A stretch of DNA of 64,000 nucleotides, taken from contig JAGFNW010000030.1 in assembly GCA_017592665.1 (NCBI GenBank), positions 1 to 64,000 on the forward strand, written 5' to 3'. Every line of letters begins with the position of its first letter. The first letter of the stretch is position 1. The translations under genes and the position numbers were made by a program. The notes under the pieces are model-generated. The model was not told where the DNA came from, made no database searches, and saw nothing but the letters and a program-made list of their open reading frames with translations. Source of the stretch: Streptosporangiaceae bacterium NEAU-GS5 (GTDB taxonomy: Bacteria > Actinomycetota > Actinomycetes > Streptosporangiales > Streptosporangiaceae). Shown piece by piece: positions 11,194 through 64,000 of the stretch.

Positions 11194-11218
11194 CTCGGGC
11201 CTTCGCCCAGTCGACGAA

Positions 11219-11944: not shown

Positions 11945-12005
11945 GGCTCTCCAGCTGTCGTCACTGCGGGAAGCATAGTCACGAATCCGTCACTGTGTCG
12001 ATCCT

Positions 12006-12045: not shown

Positions 12046-12083
12046 CCCTCTAACGTCTCCGGCAGCAGCGCCAGGGAGAGGGA

Positions 12084-47484: not shown

Positions 47485-48426
47485 TTATTCGCCGCGAATC
47501 CTGAAGCACTTCCTGAGGTGCGCCGCGGCCTGGTTGATCGCGGCACGGCTGGCATCCAGCGTGCCGACCATTGTAAAGAAGCCGTGCGCCATGCCCGGAT
47601 AGCGGCACAGTTCGACTGGCACTCCCTCCTCGGCCAGTCGCCGGGCATAGGCCTCTCCCTGGTCGCGCAGCGGGTCGTACTCGGCGGTGATGACGAGCGC
47701 GGGCGGCAGCCCGGCGAAGCTGTTCGCCCGCAGCGGCGAGGCCAGCGGGCTGGCCGCGTCACCGGGGTCGGGCAGGTAGTGCCGCCGGTACCAGGCCACG
47801 GAATGCCGGTTGAACAGGAACCTGTCGTCGGCGGCGCGGGTGGACTCATCGTCGGCCAGTTGATCGGTGTTGGGGTAAACCAGCACCTGGCCGGCGAGGG
47901 CCGGGTCCTGGCCGCGGGCGAGGAGCGTTACCGCCGCAGCCAGGTTCCCGCCCGCGCTGTCGCCACCCACCGCGAGCCGGGACGGATCCGCCCCGATCTC
48001 CGAGCAGTGGCCCGCCACCCAGCGCAGCGCCGCGTGGCAGTCATGGACCGCAGCCGGGAACGGGTGCTCGGGTGCTCGCCGGTAGCCGGGCACGACGACG
48101 AGGGCGCCGGACGCGTTGGCCAAGGCCCGGGCAACCCCGTCGGCGGTGTCGATGGTTCCCAGCACCCAGCCGCCGCCGAAGAAGTAGAGCAGCGCGGGCA
48201 GCGGCCCCTCCGCCGCGGGCCGGTAGACCCGGAGCGGCAGGTCGCCCCCGGGCCCGGGAATCACCAGGTTGGCAACTTCGCGAACAGGTTCCGGTGCCCC
48301 GCCGCCAGCACGGATGGCGGCGAGGTCCGCGGCCCTCGCCGCGGCGAGCGACATGCTGTACAGGGGCGGGACATTGTCGCGCTCGCGCTGGTCGCGCATC
48401 GCCTGCAGGTGCGGGTCCAGGGGCAT
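47485..48426 (-). CDS. Alpha/beta hydrolase, hormone-sensitive-lipase type
   Basis: A 313-residue esterase-like enzyme. The oxyanion motif reads FFGGGW (usual HGGG with its His replaced by Phe). The nucleophile elbow is GGDSAGGN (Ser about residue 145), the Asp is in EYDPLRDQGEAY and the His in GMAHGFF. ATG 48426 follows AAAGGACC. Members hydrolyse small esters or lactones. It is convergent with the relics on its left and divergent from the aminotransferase, so it is probably part of the biosynthetic cluster, perhaps for a tailoring or resistance step. Confidence 0.87.
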   Translation of the reverse strand: MPLDPHLQAMRDQRERDNVPPLYSMSLAAARAADLAAIRAGGGAPEPVREVANLVIPGPGGDLPLRVYRPAAEGPLPALLYFFGGGWVLGTIDTADGVARALANASGALVVVPGYRRAPEHPFPAAVHDCHAALRWVAGHCSEIGADPSRLAVGGDSAGGNLAAAVTLLARGQDPALAGQVLVYPNTDQLADDESTRAADDRFLFNRHSVAWYRRHYLPDPGDAASPLASPLRANSFAGLPPALVITAEYDPLRDQGEAYARRLAEEGVPVELCRYPGMAHGFFTMVGTLDASRAAINQAAAHLRKCFRIRGE

Positions 48427-48570
48427 GGCTGGTCCTTTCGCTTTCCCTGCGGGAGTCCGGTTGCCTTGCCTGCTGCGGGAATGCTCATGGGCCACTTTAC
48501 GCGTCTCATCATTGCCCATTGCCAGTGCCGTATTATAACATTTGGTGCGTACGGACCTGTTCCGGAGATA

Positions 48571-49905
48571 ATGCTCCGCGCGCTGGTCGGCACGCAGTCA
48601 TGCGTCGCGGGCGGGTTGGCTGGCCAAATGGAATTAGCACGCGAGTCGCTGCATATATCGGTGACCGACCCGGTGGCAGCGTCGATGAATTTCCTCAATG
48701 AGGTCGCCAGCCGTTTTCCTGCGGCCATTTCCCTGGCAGCCGGTCGGCCGTCCGTCGAATTCTACGATATAGCCGATGTCGAGCGATGCCTGGCGGTCTA
48801 TGTCGGCTACCTGCGCGATCAGGGGATGACCGGGTCTCGGGCCCGGGATGCCATCTTGCAGTACGGCCGGACGAATGGCCAGCTCGGCATGATGATCTCC
48901 CGGATGCTCGAGATCGACGAGGGCATTAGCGTCCCCGAAGAGTCGGTCATGGTGACGTCGGGCTGCCAGGAGGCCATGGTCATCGCCCTGCGCGGCCTCG
49001 CCGCCGCCCCGGAGGATGTCGTCCTCGCCGTTGAGCCGTGCTATGTCGGCTTCACCGGTGCCGCGCGGGTGGTGGGCGTCCCTGTGGTCGGCGTCCCGGA
49101 GGGCCCCGAGGGGGTCAGCCCGCAGGCCGTGGCGCGGGTCACCGGGGAGGTCCGGGCCAGCGGCAGGCGGCCGCGCGCCCTGTACGTGGTGCCGAACTTC
49201 GCCAACCCGTCGGGCATCTCCCTGCGCGACGAGGCCCGGCGCGGGCTGATCGAGGTGGCGGCGGAGGAGGACCTGCTGATCTTGGAGGACGACCCGTACG
49301 GACTGTTCGGAGCCGACGACCGGCGCAGCCCGACGCTGAAGTCGCTCGACACTGATCAGCGGGTCATCTACCTCGGCTCGTTCGCGAAGTCGGTATTCCC
49401 GGGGGCCCGCCTCGGCTTCCTGGTCGCCGACCAGGTCGTCGTCGGCGCCGACGGCCGCCGCAGCCTGCTGGCCGACGAACTGTCGACGGTTAAGAGCATG
49501 GTCACCGTCAACACCTCGCCGATCGCCCAGGCCGTCATCGGCGGAGCGCTGGTGTCGTGTGGCTACAGCCTGCGGTCGGCGAACCAGGAGAAGATCGCGT
49601 TCTACCGGCGCAACATGGCAGCGTTGCTGGGTGCGCTTGACCGGTGCTTCACTGATCCGTCGATCACCTGGAACACGCCCGACGGCGGCTTCTTCGCCGT
49701 CCTGCGCGCGCCCGTCCGGGCCGACGAGAAACTGCTTGAGCTTTCCGCGCGGGACTATGGCGTCCTGTGGACGCCGATGAGCTTCTTCTACCTCCAGGGC
49801 GGCGGCAGCGACGCGATCAGGCTGTCGTGCAGCGCGCTGACGGCGGACCAGATCGATGAGGGCGTACGCCGGCTCGCCACTTTCATCGCCGACGTCCGCT
49901 CGTGA
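48571..49905 (+). CDS. PLP-dependent aminotransferase (class I/II)
   Basis: A 444-residue fold-type I aminotransferase. Motifs include VTSGCQEAMVIALRGL, VVPNFANPSGISL, LILEDDPYG and the Schiff-base Lys273 in GSFAKSVFPGARLG, with the C-terminal Arg in AIRLSCSA. It resembles 2-aminoadipate/hydroxyphenylglycine-type aminotransferases. Given the 4-hydroxymandelate-synthase-like gene in the cluster, making an aryl-glycine or another amino acid is a reasonable hypothesis. ATG 48571 has GGAG only four bases before it; ATG 48628 is an alternative. It overlaps the PPTase gene by four bases. Confidence 0.85.
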   Translation: MLRALVGTQSCVAGGLAGQMELARESLHISVTDPVAASMNFLNEVASRFPAAISLAAGRPSVEFYDIADVERCLAVYVGYLRDQGMTGSRARDAILQYGRTNGQLGMMISRMLEIDEGISVPEESVMVTSGCQEAMVIALRGLAAAPEDVVLAVEPCYVGFTGAARVVGVPVVGVPEGPEGVSPQAVARVTGEVRASGRRPRALYVVPNFANPSGISLRDEARRGLIEVAAEEDLLILEDDPYGLFGADDRRSPTLKSLDTDQRVIYLGSFAKSVFPGARLGFLVADQVVVGADGRRSLLADELSTVKSMVTVNTSPIAQAVIGGALVSCGYSLRSANQEKIAFYRRNMAALLGALDRCFTDPSITWNTPDGGFFAVLRAPVRADEKLLELSARDYGVLWTPMSFFYLQGGGSDAIRLSCSALTADQIDEGVRRLATFIADVRS

Positions 49906-50600
49906 CCGGCGCCGTCCGCGTCTGGATCGTCCCGGTGGACCTGCCGCCGCAGGCGGCGGTCCGCTGCCGAGAGGTGCTCGACGAAAGCGAGCGCTGCCGG
50001 GCCGCGGCGCTCGCCAACCCGCGCACCCGGCTGGAGTACGAGATCGGACACGGCGCGCTGCGGATCCTGGCGGCCCGCGAGCTGGGGGCGAGTCCCGCGG
50101 CGCTGCGCTGGGCGCGCGGCCGCTACGGCAAGCCCGAGCTCACGGTCCAGTGGCCCGGGCTGTTCACCAGCTTGTCGCACTCTGGCACCCTGATCGCGAT
50201 ATCCGTCGCCGTCGGCCGTGCGGTAGGAGTCGACATCCAGCGCCTGGTCCCCGGCTCCGTGGCGGCTGCGATGTCCGCCCGGTTCTACCCGCCCGCCGAG
50301 GCTGAGTACGTCACGGCGGCTCCCGACATGGCGGTGCGGGCGGACCGGTTCACCCGCCTCTGGTCACGCAAGGAGGCGGTCGTCAAGGCGGCGGGCGGGC
50401 GGCTGTGGCCTAACTTGCGGATGGCGGTCTTGCACCGCGATGTCGTTATCTGCGCCGAGCCGCCCGGCGCGGCGTACCGGGTGGCGGACATCACGGCGCC
50501 GGAAGACTTCCGCGCCGCGGTCGCGGTCGCGGGCGCCGCGCCATTCGTGACCGAGTCCTCCTTCTGGCCGGGTGAAGAGGAAGGGCCGCCGCTCCGCTAG
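49902..50600 (+). CDS. 4'-phosphopantetheinyl transferase, Sfp type
   Basis: A 232-residue PPTase. The three family motifs are visible: GRYGKPEL (P1 region), FTSLSHSGTLIAIS, AVGVDIQRL (Mg-binding Asp) and WSRKEAVVKAAGG. It transfers phosphopantetheine from CoA to the carrier-protein Ser residues found in the cluster. Its GTG overlaps the aminotransferase stop, so both are co-translated. It ends nine bases from the convergent DUF3050 gene. Confidence 0.93.
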   Translation: MTGAVRVWIVPVDLPPQAAVRCREVLDESERCRAAALANPRTRLEYEIGHGALRILAARELGASPAALRWARGRYGKPELTVQWPGLFTSLSHSGTLIAISVAVGRAVGVDIQRLVPGSVAAAMSARFYPPAEAEYVTAAPDMAVRADRFTRLWSRKEAVVKAAGGRLWPNLRMAVLHRDVVICAEPPGAAYRVADITAPEDFRAAVAVAGAAPFVTESSFWPGEEEGPPLR

Positions 50601-50609
50601 GCCGCGGCC

Positions 50610-51395
50610 CTACTCGCCGATGGCCGCGAGGATGCCGTCCCAGAGACGCGCCCGGGCAGCCAGGGCGAGGTTGACGGTCTGCGCGCACTCGGCCCACTTG
50701 GCGTGGTCGTCCCCGCACAGGTCGCCGAGCATCTGCATGGCCATCGGCGTGTGCTCCTCGCTGTCGACCTGTATGTGGCGGGACAGGTAGTCGACGAACG
50801 TGCCGAGGGAGCCGAGTCGCTCGTTGACGCCGACAACTTGCTCGAACATGTCCGGGATCAGGTCCTCGCGGCCGAAGGCGAACGCCGCCGCCTGCATGTG
50901 CGTCGGCGCTTCCTCGACGAGGCTCCAGGTGAGCCGGACGAACTCAGCGGCCGGCCGGGGCACCGCGGGCTCGCCGACCGCCGTCAGCACATGTTGCCCG
51001 GCGCGGAGCCGGCTGATGAAGGCGCTGATGGCGGCGGTGTCGGCGCCGGCCTCGGTCATGCCGTTGAGGTAAAGCTCGAAGTGGCTGATGAAGCCGCCCT
51101 GGATCTCGTCGCTCTCCTCGACCAGCACGATGTCGTTGATGAGGCGGCGGCTGGCGGCCGGGCCGGCGGGCACCCATGGCACATCCACGCAGGTGAGGTT
51201 GCGCTGCAGCGACTTCAGCAGCGACATGAAGTCCCACACGGCGAACACGTGGTGCTCCATGAACGTCCGGATTGCCCGGTGGCTGGCCAGCGCCGCGTAC
51301 ATCGGGTGCTTGATGACGGCTTGCCTGGCATCGCTGATCTCCTCCTCGATGCGGTCGATCTCAGGATGCCGCTGACCCCAGTCGTAACGAGGCAT
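50610..51395 (-). CDS. DUF3050 haem-oxygenase-like (possible diiron) enzyme
   Basis: A 261-residue all-helical protein of the DUF3050 family. It starts [20 protein letters not shown]. Candidate metal ligands lie in three helices: [26 protein letters not shown] and [15 protein letters not shown]. This spacing is like haem-oxygenase-like diiron oxidases, which do N-oxygenation, C-C scission or decarboxylation in other pathways. Its start overlaps the preceding dioxygenase gene by 35 bases, so the two are tightly coupled. It is the last gene of the long minus-strand operon. The reaction here is unknown. Confidence 0.8.
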
Positions 51396-52353
51396 GTCCG
51401 CCCTCCAGTGCTTGGTTCGGGTCGCCGTTCCCGGTTGCGCCGCCGCGCCAGATGACCGGGCAGAAATCAGGATCGCTGTAGTCGGGTCGGCCGTCCGGCA
51501 GACGCCGGACCAGCACATCGTGGTTGTACGCGAGGAGCTCGCCGGTGCCAAGTTCGAACAGGCGGTAGGCGTTCTCGCCGTCTTGCAGGTGCAGGGAGAC
51601 GGCCCGGCGGGGACGCGGGCTCCGGTTTGTGTCGCTGCCGTGGTAGGTCCTGCAGTGATGGAAGCTCATGTGGCCCTTGGGGATGATCATCGGGATCTTG
51701 ACCACGCCGGCGTTGTTGTAGGCCGCGTTCTGCGCGAGCGCACGCTCCAGGTCACCGGGATCCCGCTGCGCGAAGTGCCGCGTCACCGAGTCGTCGCGGC
51801 CGGTCTCCCGCCATCTGTGGCTGCCGTCGACCATCGTGATGGTGCCCATCTCCTCGGCGCAGTCGTGAAACGGGATGAAGGCGGTGAGCATCCGCTCGGA
51901 TGACGAGGTTGACCAGTAGTGCTTGTCAAAATGCCAGGGCACCAGGTTCGTCGGCTCGGCGACGATAGGCGGCTTGTAGATCAGCGTCGACTGGAACACG
52001 CGGATCTCGTCGCAGCGGGCCAGGGCGGCGGCGACGGCGCCGATCAGGGGCTTGCGCAGCAGCCGGGCGATGGCGTCGTGCTCGTAGTGCACGTAGTCGT
52101 TGTGCCGCTGCACGTCGCCCTTGGTCGGATCCCAGTAGGCCAGCTTTGGCGGCCGCACTGGCAGGGTGCGATCGCGCTCTCCGCCGTAGTACCGCTCGCT
52201 GGCCGCGGCCAGCTCATCGATCTCGTCGTCGGTGAACAGCTTCTTGGTGAGGTACCAGCCGTGCCCGGCGTAGAACTCGATGTCGGCGTCTGATGGCAGC
52301 AGCGAGCGTTCCTGCTCGGTGAGCGAGAACGGCGGGGTGGCCAGGTCAGTCAT
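51361..52353 (-). CDS. Phytanoyl-CoA dioxygenase (PhyH) family oxygenase
   Basis: A 330-residue Fe(II)/2-oxoglutarate-type dioxygenase. The facial triad is visible as His-x-Asp in [10 protein letters not shown] and the distal His in [10 protein letters not shown], with the 2-oxoglutarate Arg in [10 protein letters not shown]. Such enzymes hydroxylate, desaturate, epoxidise or halogenate unactivated carbons. It overlaps the HmaS-like gene by eight bases upstream and the DUF3050 gene downstream. This suggests a run of oxidations on the same building block or on the assembled product. Confidence 0.88.
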
Positions 52354-53440
52354 GGGTCATACCCGATATCTGGCGGGTGCCGGCCAGTTCGCGTTCCTTG
52401 GCCGCGTACAGCGCGGAGATGTTGTTCATGCCGAACGTGCGCGCACCGCGGCGGTCAATGAGTTCCTCGAAGTACGTGCGCCTGCTATGCATCGACTGTG
52501 CGAATATCTGGTACATCTGTCCCCAGTGGTCGCGGTCGGCCAGGATGCCGAGCGGCCGGAGTTCCTCAACCGGGATCGCGGGCACGCCGAGCCGGGCTTG
52601 CAGCATGTCGTGGTAACTCGTCGGGGTCACCGCGAACCTGACGCCGCGCCCGGCGAAGGTCCGCACCGCCGCCACGATGTCGTCGGTCAGGTACGCGAGG
52701 TGCTGCACCCCGGCGCCGCCGTGCCAGGCCAGGAAGTCGTCGATATGGCCTGCCTGACGCCCCGGGTCAGGCTCGATGACCGTGAACGTGGCCCCACCGG
52801 AGGGGCTCTGCACCACCTTGGACGTTATCCCCTGGGCACCGACCTCGACGTATTCCTGGAAGATGGTCGTGAAGCCGAGAACCTCCTCGTGGAAGCCGAC
52901 GGTGGGGGCAAGGTCCCCGGCGGGCACGCACACCGCCGCGTGATCGATGCGGGTGAGCAGGTCATCGGCCGCTGCGGTGCCGACGCCGGGCTCCATCACG
53001 ATCGCGCCGGGTTGGAACTCGCTGTCCGCGCCGTCCCTGTCGATGAGCCGGTAGACCACGTCAGCGAAACCCTCGATCTCGGCGGCCACGACCCGTGCCT
53101 CGTCGTTCTCCCAGGTCCGGGGCTCGCTTACGCTCCTCGCGCCGGCCGCGTCCGCTTCGCCGTAGGCGTTGGCCGCGCTGTCGGTGCGCAGTGCGATCAC
53201 CGCCGCTCCGTCGCCGTGACGGGCGACGAACTGGCTGGCCCGGTGGTCCGCATACAGCCCGGATGTCAGCAGCACCCGGATGGCGCCCTGGCCGACGAGG
53301 ACGCTGCGCTGTCCTGGCAGGCCTGTCTCCGGCCCGCCGCGGCCGTAGACGCGGAAACCGTAGGCACCGCACAGGGACCGCGCCAGCGTGTCCGCGTCGC
53401 CTGCGTAGAACTCAACATGGTCAATATCGAGGATCTTCAT
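52346..53440 (-). CDS. hmaS: 4-hydroxymandelate synthase-like / 4-hydroxyphenylpyruvate dioxygenase family
   Basis: A 364-residue vicinal-oxygen-chelate dioxygenase. Iron ligands: His167 in TRIDHAAV, His247 in AGVQHLAY and Glu325 in YFEELID. The closing TFGMNNISALYAAKERELA is closer to glycopeptide 4-hydroxymandelate synthases than to ordinary HPPD, which ends in a different FKALFEAIE-type helix. Both use 4-hydroxyphenylpyruvate and O2; HmaS yields 4-hydroxymandelate, HPPD homogentisate. A biosynthetic setting and an aminotransferase favour HmaS, but no hydroxymandelate oxidase is in view. AGGAGG precedes ATG 53440. Confidence 0.82.
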   Translation of the reverse strand: MKILDIDHVEFYAGDADTLARSLCGAYGFRVYGRGGPETGLPGQRSVLVGQGAIRVLLTSGLYADHRASQFVARHGDGAAVIALRTDSAANAYGEADAAGARSVSEPRTWENDEARVVAAEIEGFADVVYRLIDRDGADSEFQPGAIVMEPGVGTAAADDLLTRIDHAAVCVPAGDLAPTVGFHEEVLGFTTIFQEYVEVGAQGITSKVVQSPSGGATFTVIEPDPGRQAGHIDDFLAWHGGAGVQHLAYLTDDIVAAVRTFAGRGVRFAVTPTSYHDMLQARLGVPAIPVEELRPLGILADRDHWGQMYQIFAQSMHSRRTYFEELIDRRGARTFGMNNISALYAAKERELAGTRQISGMTHD

Positions 53441-54041
53441 CGCTGCCTCCTGGTGGGGGTTCATGCGGGTCCGGGATCGTCCCCGTCCGCTGGGTCGCGA
53501 GAAGGGCGGCGCCTGCGCCCAGGCCACCGCCGGCCGGCAGGTCAACGTGCACGATGAGCGCCTCGTCGGCGTCCGCGTCGGCAAGAAACAACGCGGCGAT
53601 GCCCAGCCCGGCCCTGATCCCGCTCACGCATGCCACAGGCCCGGTCAGGTTCCAGCGGGCGGCCAGGTGGCCGGCGACGGCATTCGGGACGGACTGGAAA
53701 AACAGCAGCGGGGAGACGCGTCGGCCGGCATCGACCGTCGCCGCTACGTGGGCTGCGCTGGCAGTGTCGCCGAACGCCGTCACGATGACGATGGCGGTGG
53801 CCGCGGCGGCCGCAGCCCCATCGGGGCGCCTGCGCAGGGCACGGGTCGCGACCTCGGCCAGCAGCGGGCTGAAGCTGGACTCGATGAACGCGGCGAGTGC
53901 CGGGACGTCGGTGTCGGCGCTCGTCTCGGGCCAGGACGCGGACGACAGGACTGCCAGGCCGGCGTCGGCCGCCGCCGCGCGCAGTGCTGTCACGTCCGGG
54001 GTCACGTCCGGCCCGCGCGGCGTGGCCTGATCTGGCACCAT
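53421..54041 (-). CDS. Ketosynthase-like partner lacking the active Cys (Ketoacyl-synt_2 type)
   Basis: A 206-residue protein resembling only the N-terminal half of a beta-ketoacyl synthase. FFQSVPNAVAGHLAARWNL, GPVACVSGIRAG and EALIVHVDL align with QTLHNAVAGH, GPV.VSTACASG and ADVALAGG. The nucleophile Cys is replaced (SGIRAG). Short proteins of this type act as chain-length-factor-like partners in aryl-polyene-type systems. Its ATG overlaps the stop of the true ketosynthase, so they likely form a heterodimer. Confidence 0.72.
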   Translation of the reverse strand: MVPDQATPRGPDVTPDVTALRAAAADAGLAVLSSASWPETSADTDVPALAAFIESSFSPLLAEVATRALRRRPDGAAAAAATAIVIVTAFGDTASAAHVAATVDAGRRVSPLLFFQSVPNAVAGHLAARWNLTGPVACVSGIRAGLGIAALFLADADADEALIVHVDLPAGGGLGAGAALLATQRTGTIPDPHEPPPGGSDEDPRY

Positions 54042-55150
54042 CACGGCAGACCGACGATGAGTGCGGTGTTCGACCCGCCGAACGCGCAGTTGAGGCTCAT
54101 CGCGAGCTGCGCGGGAGCGGCGAGCGGCTCGCCCAGCACGAGGCGGAGGCCGCATTCGCTGTCCGGGCCGAGGTAGCCGGCGTTGACCGGAAGCATTCCC
54201 TTGCGCAGCGCCAGCAGCGTCACGATCAGTTCCAGCACTCCCGAGGCCTCCAGCGCTTGGCCGTGCAGCGACTTCGTGGAACTCACCGGGACGAACCGGG
54301 CGGCGTCGCCCAGCGCGAGCCGTAGCGCGCTCGCCTCGGCAGAGTCGCTCACGCGGGTGCCTGACCCGTGGGCGTTGACGTAGCCAAGGTCGCCAGGCGC
54401 GGCGCCGGCCCGCTGCAGGGCGGCCGTGATCGCCCGGGCTAGGCCCAGGCCGTCGGGACGCGGCTGGCAGGGGTGGTAGGCGTCGCCGCTGCGGCCCCAG
54501 CCGGCGATCCGCGCCGTGGGCGGCGCGCACCGTGCCCGTGCGGCCGCGGCCGACTCGATGACGACAGCGCCGACGCCGTCGCCGAGCAGCAGCCCCCGCC
54601 GTCCGGCGCTGAACGGGCGCACCTGGCCGTCGTCGGCGAGCACCCGCCCGGCGTCGAACAGCGCGAACTGGTCGCGCTCCACCAGGTACCCGCCTGCGAC
54701 GATGACGCGGTCGGCGAGGCTACGGGCGATCATGGCTGCCGCGTCGCCGATCGCGCCGCTGGCCGCCACGCATGCCGACATGTAGCAGCGCAGGCCCTGC
54801 TCCGCCAGGCCGAGGTCCCGGGCGACCGCGGCGGCGAACGCCTCCGGGCCGCCGTGGACGGCGAGAAACAGCGGGGTGCGGGCCCGGGCGGCTGCGGAAA
54901 GGCCGGCGTCGTCGCAGGCTTCGCCGGTTGCGCGGGTAAGCTCGGTGCGCAGGTCCGGGTTCCCGGGCATCGTCGCCGCGATGCCGACCCGGCGAGTGGC
55001 GACGTCGAACCGCTGGACGGGTCTGAAGGCGGGCCGGCCGGACAGCACCCCCGAGGCCAGCGCAGCAGTGCCCGGCCCGTAGCCGCTTGCGGCGGCCGAG
55101 CCGGTCACGACCACCTGGCCCGCCCCCCGCCGGGCGCGGCTGTCACGCAT
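54041..55150 (-). CDS. Beta-ketoacyl synthase
   Basis: A 369-residue condensing enzyme. The triad is intact: Cys127 in YMSACVAASGAIG, His261 in VNAHGSGTRVSD and His296 in STKSLHGQALEAS, with the closing SLNCAFGGSNTALI. It performs decarboxylative Claisen condensation between acyl and malonyl-type carrier thioesters. It overlaps the ACP gene upstream by eight bases and the Cys-less partner downstream, giving a small type II PKS/FAS-like module. Confidence 0.9.
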   Translation of the reverse strand: MRDSRARRGAGQVVVTGSAAASGYGPGTAALASGVLSGRPAFRPVQRFDVATRRVGIAATMPGNPDLRTELTRATGEACDDAGLSAAARARTPLFLAVHGGPEAFAAAVARDLGLAEQGLRCYMSACVAASGAIGDAAAMIARSLADRVIVAGGYLVERDQFALFDAGRVLADDGQVRPFSAGRRGLLLGDGVGAVVIESAAAARARCAPPTARIAGWGRSGDAYHPCQPRPDGLGLARAITAALQRAGAAPGDLGYVNAHGSGTRVSDSAEASALRLALGDAARFVPVSSTKSLHGQALEASGVLELIVTLLALRKGMLPVNAGYLGPDSECGLRLVLGEPLAAPAQLAMSLNCAFGGSNTALIVGLP

Positions 55151-55379
55151 CGGACGACCCGATCCTCAGGGCGCGGAAGACGTCGAGCGCGCCGGTGACG
55201 GTGGACATGCGGGCCAGCGCTTCGTCGCCAATGTCCAGCACGCCGTAGCGCTGCTCGACCTGGTGGATGAGCCACGCGAGTTCCAGGGAGTCGATCGTCT
55301 CCGGTACCTGCCCCGGCTCGCGATCGCCGTAGGTGGCGAGCATGGCGATGACCTCGGATCGCTCCAGCATCCCGGACAT
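55143..55379 (-). CDS. Acyl/peptidyl carrier protein 2
   Basis: A 78-residue carrier protein. The phosphopantetheine Ser31 lies in ETIDSLELAWLIHQVE at the start of helix 2, and the helix 3-4 region follows. It begins two bases after the other ACP gene and overlaps the ketosynthase start, so both carriers are co-translated with it. Confidence 0.88.
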   Translation of the reverse strand: MSGMLERSEVIAMLATYGDREPGQVPETIDSLELAWLIHQVEQRYGVLDIGDEALARMSTVTGALDVFRALRIGSSDA

Positions 55380-55381
55380 GG

Positions 55382-55639: not shown

Positions 55640-55699
55640 GGTAAGCACTTTCTTCTCGGGGGAGAGATGGCCTCGCGAGGGGCTGAGCCGGCCTGGCGG

Positions 55700-57148: not shown

Positions 57149-57258
57149 CCCGACCTCCCTCTGGTCCCGCACATTGGCATGCCGTCACGACTGTGGTTTG
57201 GTCGGCCAGGTGGGTGAGCGCGGCGCCGGCCGGTCGCGGTTCCGATGCTCATCACAGG

Positions 57259-58194
57259 TCAGCCGATCAGCTCGCGGAGTGCGTCGGCCATTTTTTCGCC
57301 CGAGCCGCACTCGCGTGCCCGCTGGACACCGGTCACCGGCAGCCACGCGACCGGCATCAGACCGAAGACCTCGACCGGCCCTGCGTACGGCGACGGCCGC
57401 CAGTGACGCGCGGCGTCCTGGTTGGCCCGCCACACGCGCAGCGAGCGCGCGGCGAAGTCGGGCTTGGCGTCCCGTGGCACAAGGTCGCGCTCCTGCCAGC
57501 TCGCCAGGATCCGCGGCAGATCCGGTGGCAGGGCCGGCTCCTCCGACAAGGGCCCGGTGATGGCGTCCGGCGGCTCCAGCAGCCCGGCGTCGATCACGGC
57601 CAGCAGCCGGACATCGTCAAGCCGGACGGCCATCTCGTAGGCGATCGCCGCCCCGATCCCACAACCGCCGAGCAGGTACGGGCCGGCGGGGCGTTCCGCG
57701 CGCACCGCATCGACGTAAGCATCGGCCATCGCCTCCAGCGTCCGGCCGGGTTCCGCGTCGGAGTAGAGCCCAGCCGCCTGGATGCCGAAGACGGTGTACT
57801 CCTCTCCCAGTGCGTGGGCGAGCCGGCAGTACAGGCCGGCCTGCCCGTGGTCCGGATGAACCAGGAACAGCGGCGAACGGGTGCCGTCGCCGTCCTGGAT
57901 CGCGATGAGCGGCCCGGACAGCCGCTCGGCGCGGTCGCGGATCAGGGTCGCCTGTTGCTCCACGGTCGGGTGCTCGGCGACCGCGTTCAGCGAGAGCTGG
58001 ACGCCGAACTCTCGCAGGATTCCGTCCAGCACCCTGGCCGCGTCCAGCGAGTTGCCACCGATGCCGAAGAAGTCCTCCCGGATCCCGACGGCGAAGCCGA
58101 GGACAAGCTGCCAATGCCGGGCCAGCCAGATCTCCACGGGATCCCTTGGCCGCTGGTAGCCGGCATCGCTCGTTTCGCTGAGGGCATGGTTCAT
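57259..58194 (-). CDS. Carrier protein-thioesterase didomain with Cys nucleophile
   Basis: A 311-residue protein. An N-terminal carrier domain (about 15-90) has Ser49 in GIGGNSLDAARVL. The thioesterase domain (about 100-311) starts PLFLVHPDHGQAGLYC. The nucleophile elbow reads LLGGCGIGAA, so Cys178 replaces the usual Ser. The Asp may be in AVIDAGLLEPP. No catalytic His of the usual GGHF type is seen in the last 40 residues. It could release or cyclise a chain, or be a non-classical acyltransferase. It overlaps the next ligase gene by four bases. Confidence 0.88.
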   Translation of the reverse strand: MNHALSETSDAGYQRPRDPVEIWLARHWQLVLGFAVGIREDFFGIGGNSLDAARVLDGILREFGVQLSLNAVAEHPTVEQQATLIRDRAERLSGPLIAIQDGDGTRSPLFLVHPDHGQAGLYCRLAHALGEEYTVFGIQAAGLYSDAEPGRTLEAMADAYVDAVRAERPAGPYLLGGCGIGAAIAYEMAVRLDDVRLLAVIDAGLLEPPDAITGPLSEEPALPPDLPRILASWQERDLVPRDAKPDFAARSLRVWRANQDAARHWRPSPYAGPVEVFGLMPVAWLPVTGVQRARECGSGEKMADALRELIG

Positions 58195-59669
58195 GGCGCG
58201 GTCGTACCGTTCTCGTGTTGGGGGGCAAGCCGCCAGCGCTGGACCTTGCCCGCCCCCGATCGGGGAACCTGGTCAACGAACGTGAACTGCTTCGGGATCT
58301 TGTATCTGGCCAGCCGCCGCCCGCAGTGCGCCGCGAGCTCGGCCTTGCGCACGCTCGCGCCGGGGCGCAGGACCACCTGCGCACCCACCACCGACCCGAG
58401 CACCTGGTGCGGGACGGCCACCACGGCCGCGTCGACAACCGCGGGGTGCTCCCGGAGCGCCGCCTCGACCTCGTCGGGATCGACCTTCTCGCCGCCCACG
58501 TTGATGATGTCGTGGTCACGCGGTTCGAGGTAGAGGTAGCCGCCGGAGTCCAGCCGACCGTGGTCGCCGACCGTGGCAAATCCGTCCCGGGTAGTTCGGA
58601 TGGCCTGCTCGCCGACGTAATCAGAGCGGACGGCCCGCTGGGGGGTCCGCATGAACACGGTACCGGTTACGCCTGGCGCCACCGGGTGGCCGGCGTCGTC
58701 CAGGATGCGGACTTGGGTGATGAAGCCGCGGCCGACCGTGCCGGGCCGGGCCAGCCACTCGTCGCCGCGGACCAGCGTCACGCCGATCCCTTCGGTTGCG
58801 CCGTACAGCTCGTAGACGCGGTCCGGGCCGAGCAGGGCGATCCAGTCGCGCTTGGTGGCCGCGTCGCAGCGGGCCGCGGTGTGCAGTACCGCCCGCAGGC
58901 TGGCGAAGGACGCCGGGTCCAGGTCCGGCAGGGCCGCGATCTCCCGCATGTGCGTCGGGGTCAGCTGGAGCCACTCGATGGCATGCCGCCGCACCAGCTC
59001 GACTGTCCACTGCGGCGCGAAGAACGGCTGCAGGACCACGGTGCCGTGGTCCAGCAGGGCGTCCACGAACGCGGTGAACGGCGCGGCATGATACAGCGGC
59101 CCGACGATGAGCGTACGCTGCCCGGTGCGCCACCCGGTCTGCCGGATCACCAGGGACGGAGTCCTGGCCGGGTCGTAGCGCAGTGGCCCCGGCCGGGCGG
59201 AGATCTTCGGGATGCCCGTGCTCGCGCCGGTGGCCAGCAGGTACGCCACGGCGTCGGCGTCGGCGCCGGCCGGCGGCTCCGGCCCGGCGGGCAGGTCCAA
59301 CCGCTGCGGCCGGAGCCGGGCGTCCATCAGGCAGGCGCGCGCGAACCGCCGGCCCAGCTGGCGCAGCAGGGCATCCTGCTCTGCCGGCGCGGCGGCCGGG
59401 TTCATCGCGAAGACCGGCACCTGCGCCGCGAGCGCCGCCACGATGCCGATGGCCGCGGGCAGCGTGTTGTCGGCCGGCACGACGGCGCAGCACCGCGCAC
59501 CCTGGCCGGCCGCCGCACGCAGTTCACTGGCCGTGTCCGCGACCCGGCCGCCGAATTCCCGCCAGGAGAGGGCCTCTTCTGCCAGGCGGGCGTCGAAGCC
59601 GACGAGGGCTGTCCGGTCCGGCTCGCCGCGGGCGAGGTCGGCGATTCGCTGGCGTACGGACAGGGTCAT
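58191..59669 (-). CDS. AMP-dependent acyl ligase 2
   Basis: A 492-residue ligase. A3 is degenerate (LLATGASTGIPKIS), A5 is ELYGATEGIG, A7 TVGDHGRLD, A8 DHDIINVGGEKVD, and A10 PRSGAGKVQRWR keeps the Lys. It looks like benzoate/fatty-acid CoA ligases more than like NRPS adenylation domains. ATG 59669 overlaps the stop region of the upstream PCP gene. It probably loads a distinct acyl group onto one of the neighbouring carriers. Confidence 0.87.
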   Translation of the reverse strand: MTLSVRQRIADLARGEPDRTALVGFDARLAEEALSWREFGGRVADTASELRAAAGQGARCCAVVPADNTLPAAIGIVAALAAQVPVFAMNPAAAPAEQDALLRQLGRRFARACLMDARLRPQRLDLPAGPEPPAGADADAVAYLLATGASTGIPKISARPGPLRYDPARTPSLVIRQTGWRTGQRTLIVGPLYHAAPFTAFVDALLDHGTVVLQPFFAPQWTVELVRRHAIEWLQLTPTHMREIAALPDLDPASFASLRAVLHTAARCDAATKRDWIALLGPDRVYELYGATEGIGVTLVRGDEWLARPGTVGRGFITQVRILDDAGHPVAPGVTGTVFMRTPQRAVRSDYVGEQAIRTTRDGFATVGDHGRLDSGGYLYLEPRDHDIINVGGEKVDPDEVEAALREHPAVVDAAVVAVPHQVLGSVVGAQVVLRPGASVRKAELAAHCGRRLARYKIPKQFTFVDQVPRSGAGKVQRWRLAPQHENGTTAP

Positions 59670-60181
59670 CGTAACTGCAGGATCTCTGCCAGCCGCCGGA
59701 TGGTGGCCGCGCTCACGAACTCGTACACGTCCAGCGGCCGACCGAACTCCGTCTCGACGGCGTCGACGATACTCAGGGCCGACAGCGAGTCGCCGCCCAG
59801 TTCCAGGAAGTCGTCGTCCACGCCCACGGACGGCACGTCCATGCGCGCTGACCAGATCGCCACTAGGCGGCGTTCCGCGTCGTCGCGCGGATGGGAATAC
59901 AGGGTGCAGCGGCCCTCGGCCACGGCCGCGGCGAGGCATTGCGCGTCCACCGCGCCGTCCACCGTCGGAATGCGCTCCGTGATCAGCACGCCGGCCAACC
60001 CGCTGTCAACGCCCAGCTCTCGCCACACGTGATTGCGCAGGACGGGCCCGCTCACGTACTCGCTTACCTCGACGGCCGCGACGGCCACCTTGTTTTCGTT
60101 GTCGTGCACGAGCGCGGTCTCGGCCCGGCGGACAGCTGGGTGCGCGGTTAGTACCCTGGTTATCTCGGGCAAGGTGGCCAC
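59666..60181 (-). CDS. Adenylation C-subdomain-like / carrier protein fusion
   Basis: A 171-residue protein. Residues 1-95 look like the small C-terminal subdomain of an adenylation enzyme, but the usual NGKVD turn is VDGAVD (residues 74-79), so the catalytic Lys is Ala. Residues 100-171 are a carrier domain with Ser132 in LELGGDSLSALS. It is what remains of an NRPS module after loss of the large adenylation domain. Activation must be supplied in trans, perhaps by one of the adjacent ligases. It overlaps the genes on both sides. Confidence 0.82.
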   Translation of the reverse strand: MATLPEITRVLTAHPAVRRAETALVHDNENKVAVAAVEVSEYVSGPVLRNHVWRELGVDSGLAGVLITERIPTVDGAVDAQCLAAAVAEGRCTLYSHPRDDAERRLVAIWSARMDVPSVGVDDDFLELGGDSLSALSIVDAVETEFGRPLDVYEFVSAATIRRLAEILQLR

Positions 60182-60951
60182 GGCTGCTCTCCTGTCAGCA
60201 GATCAGCGACGAGCTCGTGCACTTCAGGGTTGCGCAGTAGGTCATCGTGGCCGATGTCGAGCGCGATGGCCCGCGAGCCCGGCACCGGCGGCTCATAGCC
60301 GTCCGAGCAAACGAATAGCGGGACCGCCGTACGCATGTCGAACCCGCCCTCGCCTGCCAGCAGCAGGTAGTCCAGGTAGGCGGTGAACCCTGCGGTGAGC
60401 TCTCCGCGGAAGAACTCTGGCAGGGACAGCCGCCCGGCGACCGCGTGCATCAGCTGGCCGTACCTGGCGGCCAGGGCCGCGGCGATCCGCGGGAGGTCAT
60501 CCGGGTATGCCGCTGCGATTTGCTCCGAGAGGCCGCGGGCGTCCGCCAGCTCGTCCTCGGTCAGCTGCCCGGCGGAGGACTTCAGCGCCGACGTGAACTC
60601 GTCGGCCAGCGAGTCGCCGGTGGTCGGCACGGCGTCGAAGAGCAAGGTCATCGGCGCGGACTCGGTCACGGCGATCGCGTCCGCGACGCGAGTGGCCAGC
60701 GCGGCGCCGGCGCAGAAACCGAGTACCGCACGTACTGGCCGGCCGACCGCGGCGAGCTCGGCTACCCAGCGGTCAACGCGCGCCGCCAGTGGGCCCGCGC
60801 CTTCCCCCCGGATATGAAGGAAGGTGACATCGGTCGGCACCCCGGCAGCCAGCTCCCCGAAGCCCGCCGCCGTCCGGCCTCCGGCGAAATCCAGGCAGGG
60901 GACGAGATCAGGCCCCTGGTCCGACAGCTGCCGCCAGTGTGTCAGCTCCAT
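60160..60951 (-). CDS. Type II thioesterase-like protein with Cys nucleophile
   Basis: A 263-residue alpha/beta hydrolase of the NRPS thioesterase kind. The elbow is VLGFCAGAA, so Cys80 replaces Ser. The general base is probably in LDIGHDDLL near residue 240. FLHIRGEGAGPLAARVDRWV resembles the thioesterase N-terminal region. It may edit or transfer acyl groups from carriers. The start overlaps the upstream ligase gene by 44 bases and its end overlaps the carrier fusion by 22 bases. Confidence 0.78.
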   Translation of the reverse strand: MELTHWRQLSDQGPDLVPCLDFAGGRTAAGFGELAAGVPTDVTFLHIRGEGAGPLAARVDRWVAELAAVGRPVRAVLGFCAGAALATRVADAIAVTESAPMTLLFDAVPTTGDSLADEFTSALKSSAGQLTEDELADARGLSEQIAAAYPDDLPRIAAALAARYGQLMHAVAGRLSLPEFFRGELTAGFTAYLDYLLLAGEGGFDMRTAVPLFVCSDGYEPPVPGSRAIALDIGHDDLLRNPEVHELVADLLTGEQPWPPCPR

Positions 60952-62389
60952 CCAGCCCCCCTTTCGGGCCGGCGATCGCCGCCAGTACTGAGTAGTCGAT
61001 CTTTCCGCCGGGTGTCCGTGGGAGGCGGTCGACGTGCCGGAAGACCACCTGCCGGCTGGGCACCCCGAGCGACTCGACCAGTTCGCGCCGCTGCTGCTCG
61101 TGCACCGCCGCGGCGCCCGCGCCGACAAGGTGCACCACTTCGTCGATGCCGCAGATCACCGCGGCGGGGTGGCCCGGCCGTTCCACCAGGCGCTCCAGGT
61201 CGTCCAGGTTCGTGCGGACGCCGAGCACCTTCACGATCCGCTTGGTGCGTCCGGTCAGGTACAAGTAGCCGTCGCGCAGGTATCCGAGGTCCCCGGTGTC
61301 CAGGACGTCGACCTCGGCGCCGCGGGACAGGTCTTCGCGGCGCGTCGCGTAGCCGAGCATGACGCCGGGGCCCTGGTAACAGACCGCGCCCTCGCCGGAC
61401 ACGGCCCGCGCATGGGTCGGTGCCGGCCTGACCGAAACGGTGCCGCCCGGTACCGCAGTGCCCACCGATCCGAGGCGGCACGGCAGGTCGGCAGGGTCCA
61501 GGCAGGCGATCCGGGCGGTTGCCTCAGTCTGGCCGTACATTACGAAGAAGCGGCCGTCCCGCCGGCCCATCAGCCGGGCAAGCCGCATGGTCAGGTCGTT
61601 GCCCAGCCGCGCGCCCGCCTGGGTCATGGTGCGGATGCTGCTGCGGCCCAGCAGGCCGGCGTGCGCCGGCCCGAACGCCGCATAGGTCGTCGGCACCGCG
61701 GCGAACGACGTGGCACCGCACCGGATGAGGTGGTCCCACGTCGCCAGGGACAGCGGTGACCCGCCGCCGAGCACGACGCTCGCGCCTGCCAGCAGGTGGG
61801 TGTTCAGTACGGACAGCCCGTAGGCGTGCGTGACCGGCATCGTGGCCGGGGCGCGTTCGGCGGCGGTGATGCCCAGCGCGCGGATGACCGCGGCGGCGTT
61901 GCCGGCCAGCCCGGAGCACGACAGACGTACCGTCTTGGGGCTGCCGGTCGAGCCGGACGTGGCCAGCAGCAATGCCATGCCGGGGTAGATGTCCCCGGTC
62001 GGCTCGCCGCTGCTCCGCCGGAAGATGGCCCGGCCGGTGACCCGTTCCTCGGCCGGGCGGTAGCCGAGACCGGTCAGACCTGCCGCTGATCCCGGCGCCG
62101 GAACCACGAACTCGGGCTGGTATGCCGCGAGGATTTCGGGCGAGGCGGGCAGGAACGCGACGGCATGCCCCAAGCGCAGCGCGGCAAGATAGGCCAACAC
62201 AGTGGGCAGGTCACGGTCTCCCGCGCACAGCACCAGTGCCTTGCCGTCGTGACGTAGCGCCCACTCGAATTCGCTGACCAGCTTGGCCAGCTCACCGTAG
62301 GTCAGCTTGGTGCGATCCTCGAGGCACATGGCCAATGAAGTCGGCTGCGCGTCGTCGTGGGTAACGAGATCCAGCATCGCCGGCACCAT
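60908..62389 (-). CDS. AMP-dependent acyl/amino-acyl ligase 3
   Basis: A 493-residue adenylating enzyme. A3 LLATSGSTGSPKTVRLS, A5 FVMYGQTEATAR, A7 VLDTGDLGYL, A8 GRTKRIVKVLGVRTN and A10 LPRTPGGKIDYS with Lys are all present. It is the first gene of the long minus-strand operon (to 50610). It faces the divergent E1-alpha gene across about 520 bases that hold the presumed promoters. Substrate is not predictable here. Confidence 0.88.
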   Translation of the reverse strand: MVPAMLDLVTHDDAQPTSLAMCLEDRTKLTYGELAKLVSEFEWALRHDGKALVLCAGDRDLPTVLAYLAALRLGHAVAFLPASPEILAAYQPEFVVPAPGSAAGLTGLGYRPAEERVTGRAIFRRSSGEPTGDIYPGMALLLATSGSTGSPKTVRLSCSGLAGNAAAVIRALGITAAERAPATMPVTHAYGLSVLNTHLLAGASVVLGGGSPLSLATWDHLIRCGATSFAAVPTTYAAFGPAHAGLLGRSSIRTMTQAGARLGNDLTMRLARLMGRRDGRFFVMYGQTEATARIACLDPADLPCRLGSVGTAVPGGTVSVRPAPTHARAVSGEGAVCYQGPGVMLGYATRREDLSRGAEVDVLDTGDLGYLRDGYLYLTGRTKRIVKVLGVRTNLDDLERLVERPGHPAAVICGIDEVVHLVGAGAAAVHEQQRRELVESLGVPSRQVVFRHVDRLPRTPGGKIDYSVLAAIAGPKGGLDGADTLAAAVGPGA

Positions 62390-62909: not shown

Positions 62910-63953
62910 ATGACCATGACCGCAAGTCCGGGCGGAAGTTCGCCGCCGGGGAAACAATTGCCCCAGCCGAAAGACCTTTACCGTGTAATGCGGCTGATTC
63001 GACGATTCGAAGAAAAGGCAATCGACCTGGTCCGGGCCGGCACCATTGTCAGCGGCATCCACCCGTGCATCGGGCAGGAGGCAGTCGCCGCGGGGACCGG
63101 AGCCGCGCTGCGCCGCGATGACGTCATGCTGGCGAACCACCGCGCGCACGGGCAGCTGCTGGCGAAGGGCAGCGACCCCGGTCGGCTGCTCGCCGAGATG
63201 GCCGGGCGCACCACCGGGGTCGCCCACGGTCGGGGAGGCTCGTTTCACCCCTCCGACTTCACCGTCGGCGTGCTCGGGTCAACGGGGTCGGTGGGCCATG
63301 GCGCGGCCCTGGCAACGGGGGCGGCGTGGGCGCTGGCCCGCTCGGGCGGCGACCGTGTCGCGGTAAGCGTCTTCGGCGACGGCGCCGTCAACCAGGGGGC
63401 GCTGCTCGAGGCCCTCAACCTGGCCGCGCTGTGGCAGGTCCCGGCCGTTTTCATCTGCGAGAACAACCGCTACGCGACCACACTCCCCGTTGAGGCGGCC
63501 GTGGCCGGGACCATCACGGGGCGGGCGGAGGCCTTCGGGATCCCCGCGCACAGCCACGACGGGATGGATCCGGAGACCGTGTACGCGGCGGTGGCCGGCG
63601 CCGTCGCCCGGGCGCGCGCCGGCCAGGGCCCGGCGTTCCTGGAATTCCGCACCTACCGGTTCTTCGGCCACCACACCTTCGAGGCCACGACAAGGCCGCG
63701 TTACCGGGATCCGGAGGAGGTCGCCCGCTGGCAGGCCCGTGACCCGCTGGCGCTGCAGGCCGGGCGGATCCCGGAAGGTACCCGAGCGCGGATCGACGGG
63801 GAGGTGGAGGAGGCCGTTGAGGCGGCGGTGCGGTTCGCCCTGGCCGGCCCGAAACCGGACCCGGCCGACGCCGCCGAGTACCTGTACGCGTCGGGCCTGC
63901 GCCCCCGGCCGGGTATAGCGGCCATCCGGGGGGAAAGGACTGCCACACGGTGA
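62910..63953 (+). CDS. 2-oxoacid dehydrogenase E1 component, alpha subunit
   Basis: A 347-residue thiamine-diphosphate enzyme subunit. LYRVMRLIRRFEEKAIDLVR opens the fold. HPCIGQEAVAAG, ANHRAHGQLLAKG and the ThDP motif from GDGAVNQG to CENN (about residues 160-190) are intact, as is RYRDPEEVARW at the phosphorylation-loop position. E1-alpha with E1-beta decarboxylates a 2-oxoacid and passes the acyl group on, normally to lipoyl-E2. ATG 62910 follows TGAGGTG; the longer in-frame extension to 62571 is rejected. It overlaps E1-beta by four bases. Confidence 0.92.
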   Translation: MTMTASPGGSSPPGKQLPQPKDLYRVMRLIRRFEEKAIDLVRAGTIVSGIHPCIGQEAVAAGTGAALRRDDVMLANHRAHGQLLAKGSDPGRLLAEMAGRTTGVAHGRGGSFHPSDFTVGVLGSTGSVGHGAALATGAAWALARSGGDRVAVSVFGDGAVNQGALLEALNLAALWQVPAVFICENNRYATTLPVEAAVAGTITGRAEAFGIPAHSHDGMDPETVYAAVAGAVARARAGQGPAFLEFRTYRFFGHHTFEATTRPRYRDPEEVARWQARDPLALQAGRIPEGTRARIDGEVEEAVEAAVRFALAGPKPDPADAAEYLYASGLRPRPGIAAIRGERTATR

Positions 63954-64000
63954 GCAAGCTGTCGTACACGCGTGCCCTGAACCTGGCGCTCGCCGCCGAG
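63950..64000 (+). CDS. 2-oxoacid dehydrogenase E1 component, beta subunit (truncated by window)
   Basis: GTG at 63950 overlaps the E1-alpha stop. The first 17 residues, MSKLSYTRALNLALAAE, match the usual start of E1-beta chains (TYxxALNxAL). The rest lies beyond the window. Confidence 0.8.
   Translation, partial: MSKLSYTRALNLALAAE

What the first reader, a model, noticed from the sequence alone, without database searches (positions are those of the whole stretch)
47485..64000. Discrete-component NRPS/PKS hybrid cluster with no recognised product
Seen: three AMP-forming ligases, a carrier fused to a Lys-less adenylation subdomain, a carrier-thioesterase, a second thioesterase, two ACPs, a ketosynthase with a Cys-less partner, HmaS-like, PhyH and DUF3050 enzymes, PPTase, aminotransferase and E1-alpha/beta. 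All domains are on separate small proteins, with no multimodular synthetase in view. Known: stand-alone C, A and PCP proteins occur in pyrrolamide-type pathways, but this mixture does not match a pathway I know. Inference: an unassigned hybrid assembly line, continuing to the right.
Basis: partly seen in the sequence, partly recalled or inferred. Interest (0 to 1): 0.9.

Follow-up and report, generated by a model that had tools for sequence, protein, structure and literature searches.

The report
Conserved orphan arylglycine-like biosynthetic core
The window holds a real, apparently undescribed antibiotic-type gene cluster whose central set of about ten genes recurs in the same order in dozens of other actinomycetes and probably builds an unusual aromatic building block, but what it makes is not known.

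Summary
Observation confirmed: ligases, carriers, thioesterases, KS with Cys-less partner, HmaS-like, PhyH, DUF3050, PPTase, aminotransferase and E1 are all there. The cluster is larger than described, about 39.7-76 kb of the contig. The main find is a core (AMP1, two ACPs, KS, short CLF, HmaS, PhyH, E1alpha/beta, ligase AMP4, often DUF3050) that keeps its order elsewhere: 50 of 64 flank-complete loci hold all ten non-DUF genes. The free-standing NRPS genes were met again only in Actinophytocola oryzae. HmaS keeps six of seven hydroxymandelate-synthase columns tested almost invariantly, the seventh in 60 of 75. Several relatives add an alpha-hydroxyacid oxidase near the aminotransferase, so hydroxyphenylglycine logic is likely. 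DUF3050 folds like HamA (39% identity); AMP4 is a sister clade of Tri17/8ztz. Both hint at N-N chemistry, but no nitrosuccinate lyase passed its cut-off in 15 genomes. The KS lacks one of two catalytic histidines in 73 of 77 sequences. It resembles cispentacin KS-CYF but fails those membership tests. Ten searches of open-licence papers gave no description; MIBiG could not be queried. Product unknown.

The parts
39735..41063 (-). condensation-like protein (442 aa)
   Evidence: Pfam Condensation 2.9e-10; best homologues in sister clusters 32-40% over about 440 aa
41107..42333 (-). family 2 glycosyltransferase, perhaps part of the cluster
   Evidence: Pfam; lies between two cluster genes; no homologue reported in the sister loci
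42465..44204 (-). condensation-like protein (579 aa)
   Evidence: weak Pfam Condensation on the longer frame; 54% over 581 aa to a protein of the A. oryzae cluster
47485..48519 (-). Abhydrolase_3 (abh3)
   Evidence: Pfam 6.8e-75; homologue at 40% or more in 25 of 92 sources, six genomes counted twice, flanks limited
48628..49905 (+). PLP aminotransferase (AT)
   Evidence: Pfam; nearest solved structures are multi-substrate/aminoadipate/kynurenine transaminases; 23 of 92 sources
49902..50600 (+). 4'-phosphopantetheinyl transferase
   Evidence: Pfam ACPS 1.5e-11
50610..51395 (-). DUF3050, HamA-like heme-oxygenase-fold protein, probably a diiron oxygenase
   Evidence: Pfam 7e-95; AF2 model pLDDT 80.5 with residues 69-78 and 82-99 below 50; top PDB fold hit 9vwb HamA, 39% id, TM 0.83/0.87
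51361..52353 (-). PhyH Fe/2-oxoglutarate dioxygenase
   Evidence: Pfam 3.2e-23; nearest solved SnoK/SnoN, 43 and 39 bits
52346..53443 (-). HmaS-like hydroxymandelate synthase
   Evidence: best PDB hit 2r5v, 277 bits; HMS columns
53421..54041 (-). short Cys-less KS partner (ApeC/AmcG-like CLF or CYF)
   Evidence: AmcG model 28.8 bits, cut-off 80; AF2 pLDDT 88.8; top fold hit 6qsp chain B of the ApeO-ApeC entry, TM 0.57/0.50, 19% id
54041..55150 (-). ketosynthase (KS), active Cys127, His261 kept, Gln298 in the second His place
55143..55379 (-). acyl carrier protein ACPa (78 aa)
   Evidence: no Pfam hit; homologue in 85 of 92 sources; DSLELA motif
55382..55648 (-). acyl carrier protein ACPb
   Evidence: PP-binding 2.5e-4, 21.6 bits against cut-off 20.8
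55700..57172 (-). AMP1, adenylate-forming ligase next to the ACPs
   Evidence: Pfam 4.8e-32; 64 of 64 flank-complete loci; not among listed AmcH matches
57259..58194 (-). PCP-thioesterase
   Evidence: Pfam; 53% to A. oryzae
58191..59669 (-). AMP2 ligase
   Evidence: Pfam 2.5e-32; 68% to A. oryzae
59666..60181 (-). Lys-less A_sub fused to PCP
   Evidence: PP-binding 2.2e-14; Lys absent here and in A. oryzae
60160..60951 (-). thioesterase-like TE2
   Evidence: Pfam 0.0034, below cut-off; 50% to A. oryzae
60908..62389 (-). AMP3 ligase
   Evidence: Pfam 3.9e-32; 68% to A. oryzae
62910..63953 (+). E1alpha, pyruvate-dehydrogenase type
   Evidence: Pfam 3.6e-60; nearest solved PDH E1alpha, 190 bits
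63950..64000 (+). start of E1beta (contig 63950-64948); cluster continues: TE3 64945-65865, ABC 65862-66842, ABC2 66945-67700, AMP4 67718-69394, C-PCP 69450-71264, PCP 71504-71878, GT 72202-73341, ACP 73338-73658, KSIII 73907-74830, ACP 74912-75187, KSIII-like 75343-76074

Best explanation
This is one version of a widespread, apparently undescribed biosynthetic core. HmaS turns an arylpyruvate, most likely 4-hydroxyphenylpyruvate, into the hydroxymandelate-type acid. An alpha-hydroxyacid oxidase (in several sister clusters, not in this one) and the aminotransferase can take this to the benzoylformate and arylglycine level. AMP1 loads an acid of this kind on an ACP, and the KS with its short Cys-less partner adds about one C2 unit and perhaps cyclises it. 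PhyH and the HamA-like DUF3050 protein oxidise, E1alpha/beta adds or removes a unit from pyruvate or another keto acid, and AMP4 makes an ATP-dependent bond to a nitrogen. In this genome the unit is then joined to further acids by free-standing NRPS pieces, glycosylated and exported. SHOWN by sequence: gene set, conserved order, family of each enzyme, retained HMS residues, HamA-like predicted fold, AMP4's place beside Tri17/8ztz, changed KS histidines. INFERRED: substrates, order of steps, product, the E1 and AMP4 reactions.
For: Order conserved: of 64 flank-complete loci AMP1 64, HmaS 60, PhyH 61, E1a 57, AMP4 58, DUF3050 47, all ten non-DUF genes 50. HmaS: in 75 sequences (69 distinct genomes) both Fe His 75/75, Fe Glu 74 plus one gap, Ser 75, second Gln 75, Ile at the HMS/HPPD place 74 plus one gap, first Gln only 60; median 47% to 2r5v, this one 44%. 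alpha-Hydroxyacid oxidase in 6 of 7 larger sister regions, next to AT in five and three genes away in the sixth; Pfam FMN_dh for the two members scanned; HmO 5zzp among its solved relatives. The HmaS-HmaO-HpgT route as told for epoxinnamide (PMC9321520, passages). Same NRPS genes in A. oryzae.
Against: No oxidase gene in this cluster; the nearest G000 homologue lies elsewhere (C88, 48%). None in the A. oryzae region or in the stretches held of G013, G092 and G176. The oxidase is as close to glycolate/lactate oxidases as to HmO. AMP1's substrate is unknown. The KS lacks the full Cys-His-His set, so elongation is not certain. No KR, DH or E2/E3 was met among the annotated genes (not every flanking gene was annotated). 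4 of 64 loci lack a separate HmaS and 7 lack E1.
Confidence: 0.45

Rival explanations
1. Cispentacin/coronafacate-like: the KS and its partner are a KS-CYF pair that makes a cyclopentenone from 2-oxoglutarate and malonate, later modified by HmaS, PhyH and DUF3050.
For: KS scores 166 bits on AmcF over nearly its whole length (FabF is its top NCBIfam hit, 211 bits over part of it) and the partner 28.8 on AmcG, the partner's only NCBIfam hit; AmcG likewise lacks known functional motifs and pairs with a KS (PMC10698177, sections 7 and 9).
Against: All below cut-offs. KS is 30% identical to the KS beside an over-cut-off AmcH in D. vinaceum, and our partner had no BLAST match there at 1e-4. AMP1 is not among the listed AmcH matches, which go down to 67 bits; AMP3 scores 65.7. 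That AmcF keeps Cys-His-His, the core KS mostly does not.
Confidence: 0.12
2. Two unrelated functions side by side: HmaS and AT supply (hydroxy)phenylglycine as an amino acid for the NRPS parts, while KS/CLF/ACPs make a separate acyl chain.
For: Stand-alone A, PCP, C and TE proteins are present; the short partner's best fold match is the ApeO-ApeC aryl-polyene entry.
Against: HmaS stays beside KS/CLF in loci where these NRPS genes were not found. No KR/DH for a polyene among the annotated genes.
Confidence: 0.18
3. The product carries an N-N bond (diazo, hydrazone or nitroso-hydroxylamine) made by AMP4 and/or the HamA-like protein.
For: In all 9 genomes searched with the AvaA6 model the best match lies beside the KS: 395-508 bits in seven core clusters, 401 in G083 (KS relative without HmaS), 245 in G159 where the contig ends. 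Ordinary ligases score at most 89, apart from one 111-bit fragment in G159; a few further clade members score 323-451. DUF3050's closest fold is HamA, hypothesised for fragin's N-N bond (PMC11705231, passages).
Against: AvaA6 cut-off 975 never reached. AMP4 is its own clade (support 97), apart from 8ztz, Tri17 and 9xb8 (support 78). The P-loop Lys is missing in 14 of 67, this one included. No nitrosuccinate lyase over cut-off in 15 genomes; 8 have weaker matches, up to 571 bits in A. oryzae, of which only G000's was followed up. The enzyme that makes the fragin diazeniumdiolate is still called elusive (PMC11659414, passages). DUF3050 is absent from 17 of 64 loci.
Confidence: 0.25
4. A decayed, non-functional cluster.
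For: Changed KS histidine and lost AMP4 P-loop Lys, no oxidase gene.
Against: Open frames; the KS changes are fixed in two large groups across many genera; DUF3050 77% mean column identity in 25 sequences.
Confidence: 0.04

Closest known systems
Hydroxyphenylglycine (Hpg) pathway: HmaS, HmO, HpgT
   Same: HmaS with the HMS columns; several sister clusters add an FMN alpha-hydroxyacid oxidase near an aminotransferase
   Different: embedded in a KS/CLF/ACP operon; no modular NRPS found in it; oxidase absent from this cluster
Cispentacin AmcF-AmcG (KS-CYF) clusters
   Same: KS plus short Cys-less partner, ACP, AMP ligase together
   Different: 30% KS identity to an AmcF-position KS, ligase not AmcH, altered KS catalytic residues; AmcC-AmcE not specifically sought
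Avenalumic acid AvaA6 / triacsin Tri17 ATP-dependent N-N enzymes
   Same: AMP4 aligns over nearly its whole length; this one 39% to 8ztz and 37% to Tri17, core members 37-45%
   Different: separate clade; no over-cut-off nitrosuccinate lyase; P-loop Lys lost here. The function of 8ztz and 9xb8 was not looked up
Fragin HamA (DUF3050/heme-oxygenase-like)
   Same: 39% identity, same fold; invariant Glu/His/Asp set compatible with a diiron site
   Different: HamC- or HamD-like partners were not met among annotated genes (not specifically sought); cupin and cyclase genes in Micromonospora are put down to its aromatic PKS
Pristinamycin L-phenylglycine operon (PglB/C E1 pair, PglE) - recalled, not tested
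   Same: E1alpha/beta with TE and aminotransferase in one cluster
   Different: HmaS instead of PglA

Membership tests
Hpg pathway | HMS-type HmaS (Fe ligands, Ile at the HPPD Phe place; the diagnostic place is recalled) | tested here: met
   six of seven columns near-invariant, first Gln 60 of 75; this protein has all seven
Hpg pathway | alpha-hydroxyacid (hydroxymandelate) oxidase in the cluster | tested here: not met
   absent in this cluster; present in 6 of 7 larger sister regions; homologue elsewhere in the genome
Hpg pathway | arylglycine aminotransferase | tested here: inconclusive
   AT present, multi-substrate/aminoadipate/kynurenine type; substrate unknown
Cispentacin KS-CYF (AmcF-AmcG) | KS and partner above AmcF/AmcG cut-offs | tested here: not met
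   166 of 325 and 28.8 of 80 bits
Cispentacin KS-CYF (AmcF-AmcG) | AmcH-type 2-oxoglutaryl-ACP ligase | tested here: not met
   1 of 9 genomes over cut-off, D. vinaceum, at another locus
AvaA6/Tri17 N-N ligases | over the AvaA6 cut-off or nested in the known clade | tested here: not met
   395-508 of 975 bits in seven core clusters; separate clade
AvaA6/Tri17 N-N ligases | nitrosuccinate-lyase nitrite source in the genome | tested here: inconclusive
   0 of 15 over cut-off, but 8 of 15 with weaker matches; the G000 one lies in what reads as a pca operon
HamA-type heme-oxygenase-like proteins | same fold and significant sequence identity | tested here: met
   9vwb, E 3.6e-14, 39%
HamA-type heme-oxygenase-like proteins | N-N bond formation | not testable with these tools
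   role of HamA itself still hypothetical
Canonical type II PKS / FabF KS | Cys-His-His catalytic set | tested here: not met
   4 of 77 distinct KS keep it (CHKHH 3, CHKTH 1); this one has Cys-His-Gln
Pyrrolamide-type pathways | pyrrole amino-acid genes with stand-alone NRPS parts | not tested
   no specific search made

The most novel reading that the evidence does not exclude
The core makes an arylglycine-derived, carrier-bound unit bearing an N-N bond by a route without aspartate-nitrosuccinate nitrite: a HamA-like diiron protein and a Tri17-sister ligase act with a KS/short-CLF pair in which one or the other of the two catalytic histidines has been given up and whose job has changed. That would be a new building-block pathway shared as a cassette by aromatic polyketide, glycoside and NRPS clusters.
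Probability: 0.18. Interest if true: 0.85.

Novelty: new variant of a known kind. Interest (0 to 1): 0.57.

Why it matters
One unexplained pathway would account for clusters in many actinomycetes: the KS relatives lie in 15 named genera by record title, among them many Micromonospora, where the core sits beside an aromatic type II PKS. A Micromonospora type II cluster with a similar oddity (ACP with a cyclase domain upstream of KSalpha) is in print as unpredictable (PMC9967187, passages); that it is this locus is inference. Because the cassette is small, discrete and conserved, it could be rebuilt in vitro protein by protein, as cispentacin was (PMC10698177).

Tried and rejected
Considered and dropped: (1) cispentacin-type cyclopentane pathway. 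(2) ANS-pathway nitrite in G000: Lyase_1 gave four hits. One scored 518 bits on the nitrosuccinate-lyase model (cut-off 650) but passed the pcaB cut-off and lies beside what read by eye as protocatechuate genes. The weaker matches in seven other genomes, up to 571 bits in A. oryzae, were not followed up, and some of those genomes are incomplete. (3) AMP1 as AmcH. (4) Known product from the literature: ten searches gave none. They cover open-licence PMC papers only; no supplements, MIBiG or antiSMASH. (5) PF13454 as a CreE marker gave two weak hits; CreE was not searched with a model of its own. (6) Motif counting by regular expression missed many sequences and was replaced by alignment columns. 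(7) PMC12154687 (outline and abstract) and PMC8698034 (passages) gave nothing that names this cluster.

Counting caveats: six genomes occur twice among the 92 sources and in the raw counts (G013=L042, G159=L043, G011=L067, G176=L091, G047=L106, G092=L110). removes them for KS (KS of 50% or more and over 330 aa) and AMP4 (40% or more and over 480 aa) and gives the distinct number for HmaS. One search's 100 sources also hold some genomes more than once. One search kept the best 80 of 86 relatives. One search used these 80 L loci: L114 dropped out (KS below its 50% threshold) and 15 had too little flank, leaving 64. L076 counts as lacking HmaS though its HmaS and PhyH read as one 672-aa frame. 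L043 and L081 count as lacking AMP4 although it lies farther off. Loci were gathered by KS similarity, so the frequencies describe relatives of this KS, not actinomycetes at large. Absence of accessory genes means absence from the stretches held.


Full report
Observation. The window is the first 64 kb of a 113,103-base contig of a 9.96 Mb actinomycete genome, 99.4% complete. It is probably Streptosporangiaceae: two relatives of the same family are so titled; this is inference. Right of the window come E1beta, a thioesterase, a DrrA-type ABC pair, a fourth ligase (AMP4), a C-PCP didomain, a glycosyltransferase, three more carriers and two KSIII-like genes, to about 76 kb. Beyond 78 kb the genes scanned look unrelated.

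A conserved core. KS relatives were sought in the own family: of 296 other genomes sampled, six carry KS relatives of 57-76% identity, and their surroundings hold the core, some genes missing in some. Five others with KS relatives of 46-50% (G079, G127, G074, G102, G083) do not show HmaS. A scan of named genomes with a seven-KS alignment gave 86 relatives, of which 80 loci were kept: Micromonospora, Catellatospora, Dactylosporangium, Kitasatospora, Catenulispora, Kribbella, Actinophytocola and others. Gene order around them was read with a small gene caller and BLAST. The recurring order is AMP1-ACPb-ACPa-KS-CLF-(AMP4)-(KS2)-HmaS-PhyH-(DUF3050)-E1a-E1b; AMP4 lies either after CLF or after E1b. 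In the 64 of 80 loci with 4.5 kb upstream and 9 kb downstream of the KS, AMP1 is in 64, ACPb 60, ACPa 63, CLF 64, HmaS 60, PhyH 61, E1a 57, E1b 57, AMP4 58 and DUF3050 47; all ten without DUF3050 are in 50. L064 and L098 lack HmaS, PhyH, E1 and AMP4. AT and the abh3 hydrolase lie a little farther out.

Accessories differ. Micromonospora loci add carboxylase subunits, an ACP-cyclase, a cupin and a second KS/CLF pair, i.e. an aromatic type II PKS (Pfam on one locus; homologues in 15-28 loci). Dactylosporangium and Kitasatospora add GT, methyltransferase, ABC, condensation-like and KSIII genes. In the stretches held only G000 and A. oryzae have AMP3, TE2, A_sub-PCP, AMP2 and PCP-TE, with 50-68% identity and the same order.

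Enzymes of the core. HmaS: best solved match is 2r5v (that PCZA361.1 is chloroeremomycin HmaS is recalled). In 75 family sequences the three Fe ligands, a Ser, one Gln and the Ile that (recalled) separates HMS from HPPD are kept, apart from one gap each at the Glu and the Ile; a second Gln is kept in 60. In 6 of 7 larger sister regions an FMN alpha-hydroxyacid oxidase lies by the AT, and tblastn finds it in 22 of 100 stretches, A. oryzae not among them. It is related equally to HmO, lactate and glycolate oxidases. Together these are the parts of the Hpg route (PMC9321520, passages). G000 has no such gene in the cluster, only a 48% homologue elsewhere.

KS and partner. The KS has its Cys. Of 77 distinct core KS, 45 have Asn for the first catalytic His, 27 have Gln for the second, 1 has Gln for the second and no extra His, 3 keep both with an extra His, and 1 is canonical. 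The KS at the AmcF place in D. vinaceum keeps all three residues. An extra His two residues before the second site is present in 75 of 77 and may compensate (inference). The short partner folds like part of a KS; its top fold match is chain B of the ApeO-ApeC entry, TM 0.57/0.50. The NCBIfam hits to AmcF/AmcG led to the cispentacin paper (PMC10698177; sections 7 and 9, passages and the first part of the text), but the membership tests made failed (see table).

N-related enzymes. DUF3050 occurs in the mgo operon, where its disruption only lowered mangotoxin output (PMC3298696, passages). Its predicted structure matches HamA, then UndA and CADD. Invariant E93/E94, H105, E177, H207, D211 and H215 resemble the SznF ligands quoted in PMC11705231; E177 to H207 is 30 residues, as E281 to H311 in SznF. 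E93/E94 lie in a low-confidence stretch of the model, and H215 is one residue farther than the SznF spacing. AMP4 aligns nearly end to end with 8ztz, Tri17 (9bq0/8tf7, named in PMC11705231) and 9xb8; this one is 39, 37 and 35% identical to them. It forms its own clade (support 97), apart from all three (support 78). All 67 distinct AMP4 keep the C-terminal Lys; 14, including this one, have lost the P-loop Lys. No nitrosuccinate lyase passed its cut-off in 15 genomes, though 8 have weaker matches. N-N chemistry is therefore a live but unproven reading.

Verdict. Real, larger than described, and one member of a widespread orphan cluster family; the parts are known kinds in a combination I did not find described. 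The product is not determined. Literature searches were limited to open-licence PMC (calls listed in Tried and rejected).

Noticed in passing
L148 (G299:C1:8350001-8370000), about 8792-12070: Dactylosporangium vinaceum has, apart from the core, a compact ACP-KS-short protein-ligase set whose ligase passes the AmcH cut-off: a likely minimal-type 2-oxoglutarate/KS-CYF cluster (other three assigned by place and size).
   Followed up: partly
L149 (G299:C1:8545000-8564999), 5510-11562: An AMP4 homologue (61% to this one) lies with GT, a small possible carrier, two KSIII-like genes and a 415-aa protein, without KS/HmaS in the 20 kb: a possible separate sub-module.
   Followed up: partly
L134-L135 and L147 (Kitasatospora sp. 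Root107): Two diverged copies of the core in one genome.
   Followed up: no
L129:3044-5062 (-): In Micromonospora lupini HmaS and PhyH read as one 672-aa frame; real fusion or sequencing error not settled.
   Followed up: no
L139, joined coordinates 50761-57999 (A. oryzae): A 2413-aa NRPS-like frame (runs off the stretch) lies about 11 kb beyond the AMP4 of the A. oryzae cluster; whether it belongs to it is open.
   Followed up: no
window 38333-38692 and 46872-47397: Short reading frames that look by eye like transposase fragments flank the left arm of the cluster.
   Followed up: no
G000 contig C52, 78.8-113 kb (L007-L009): CHAT/TPR protein, Ntox4-domain protein, serine recombinase and an SpvB/TcdB-type protein follow the cluster.
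   Followed up: no
G000:C59:49319-50593 (L157): A pcaB-type lyase in a pca-like operon scores 518 bits on the nitrosuccinate-lyase model (cut-off 650), a warning for automatic ANS-pathway calls.
   Followed up: yes
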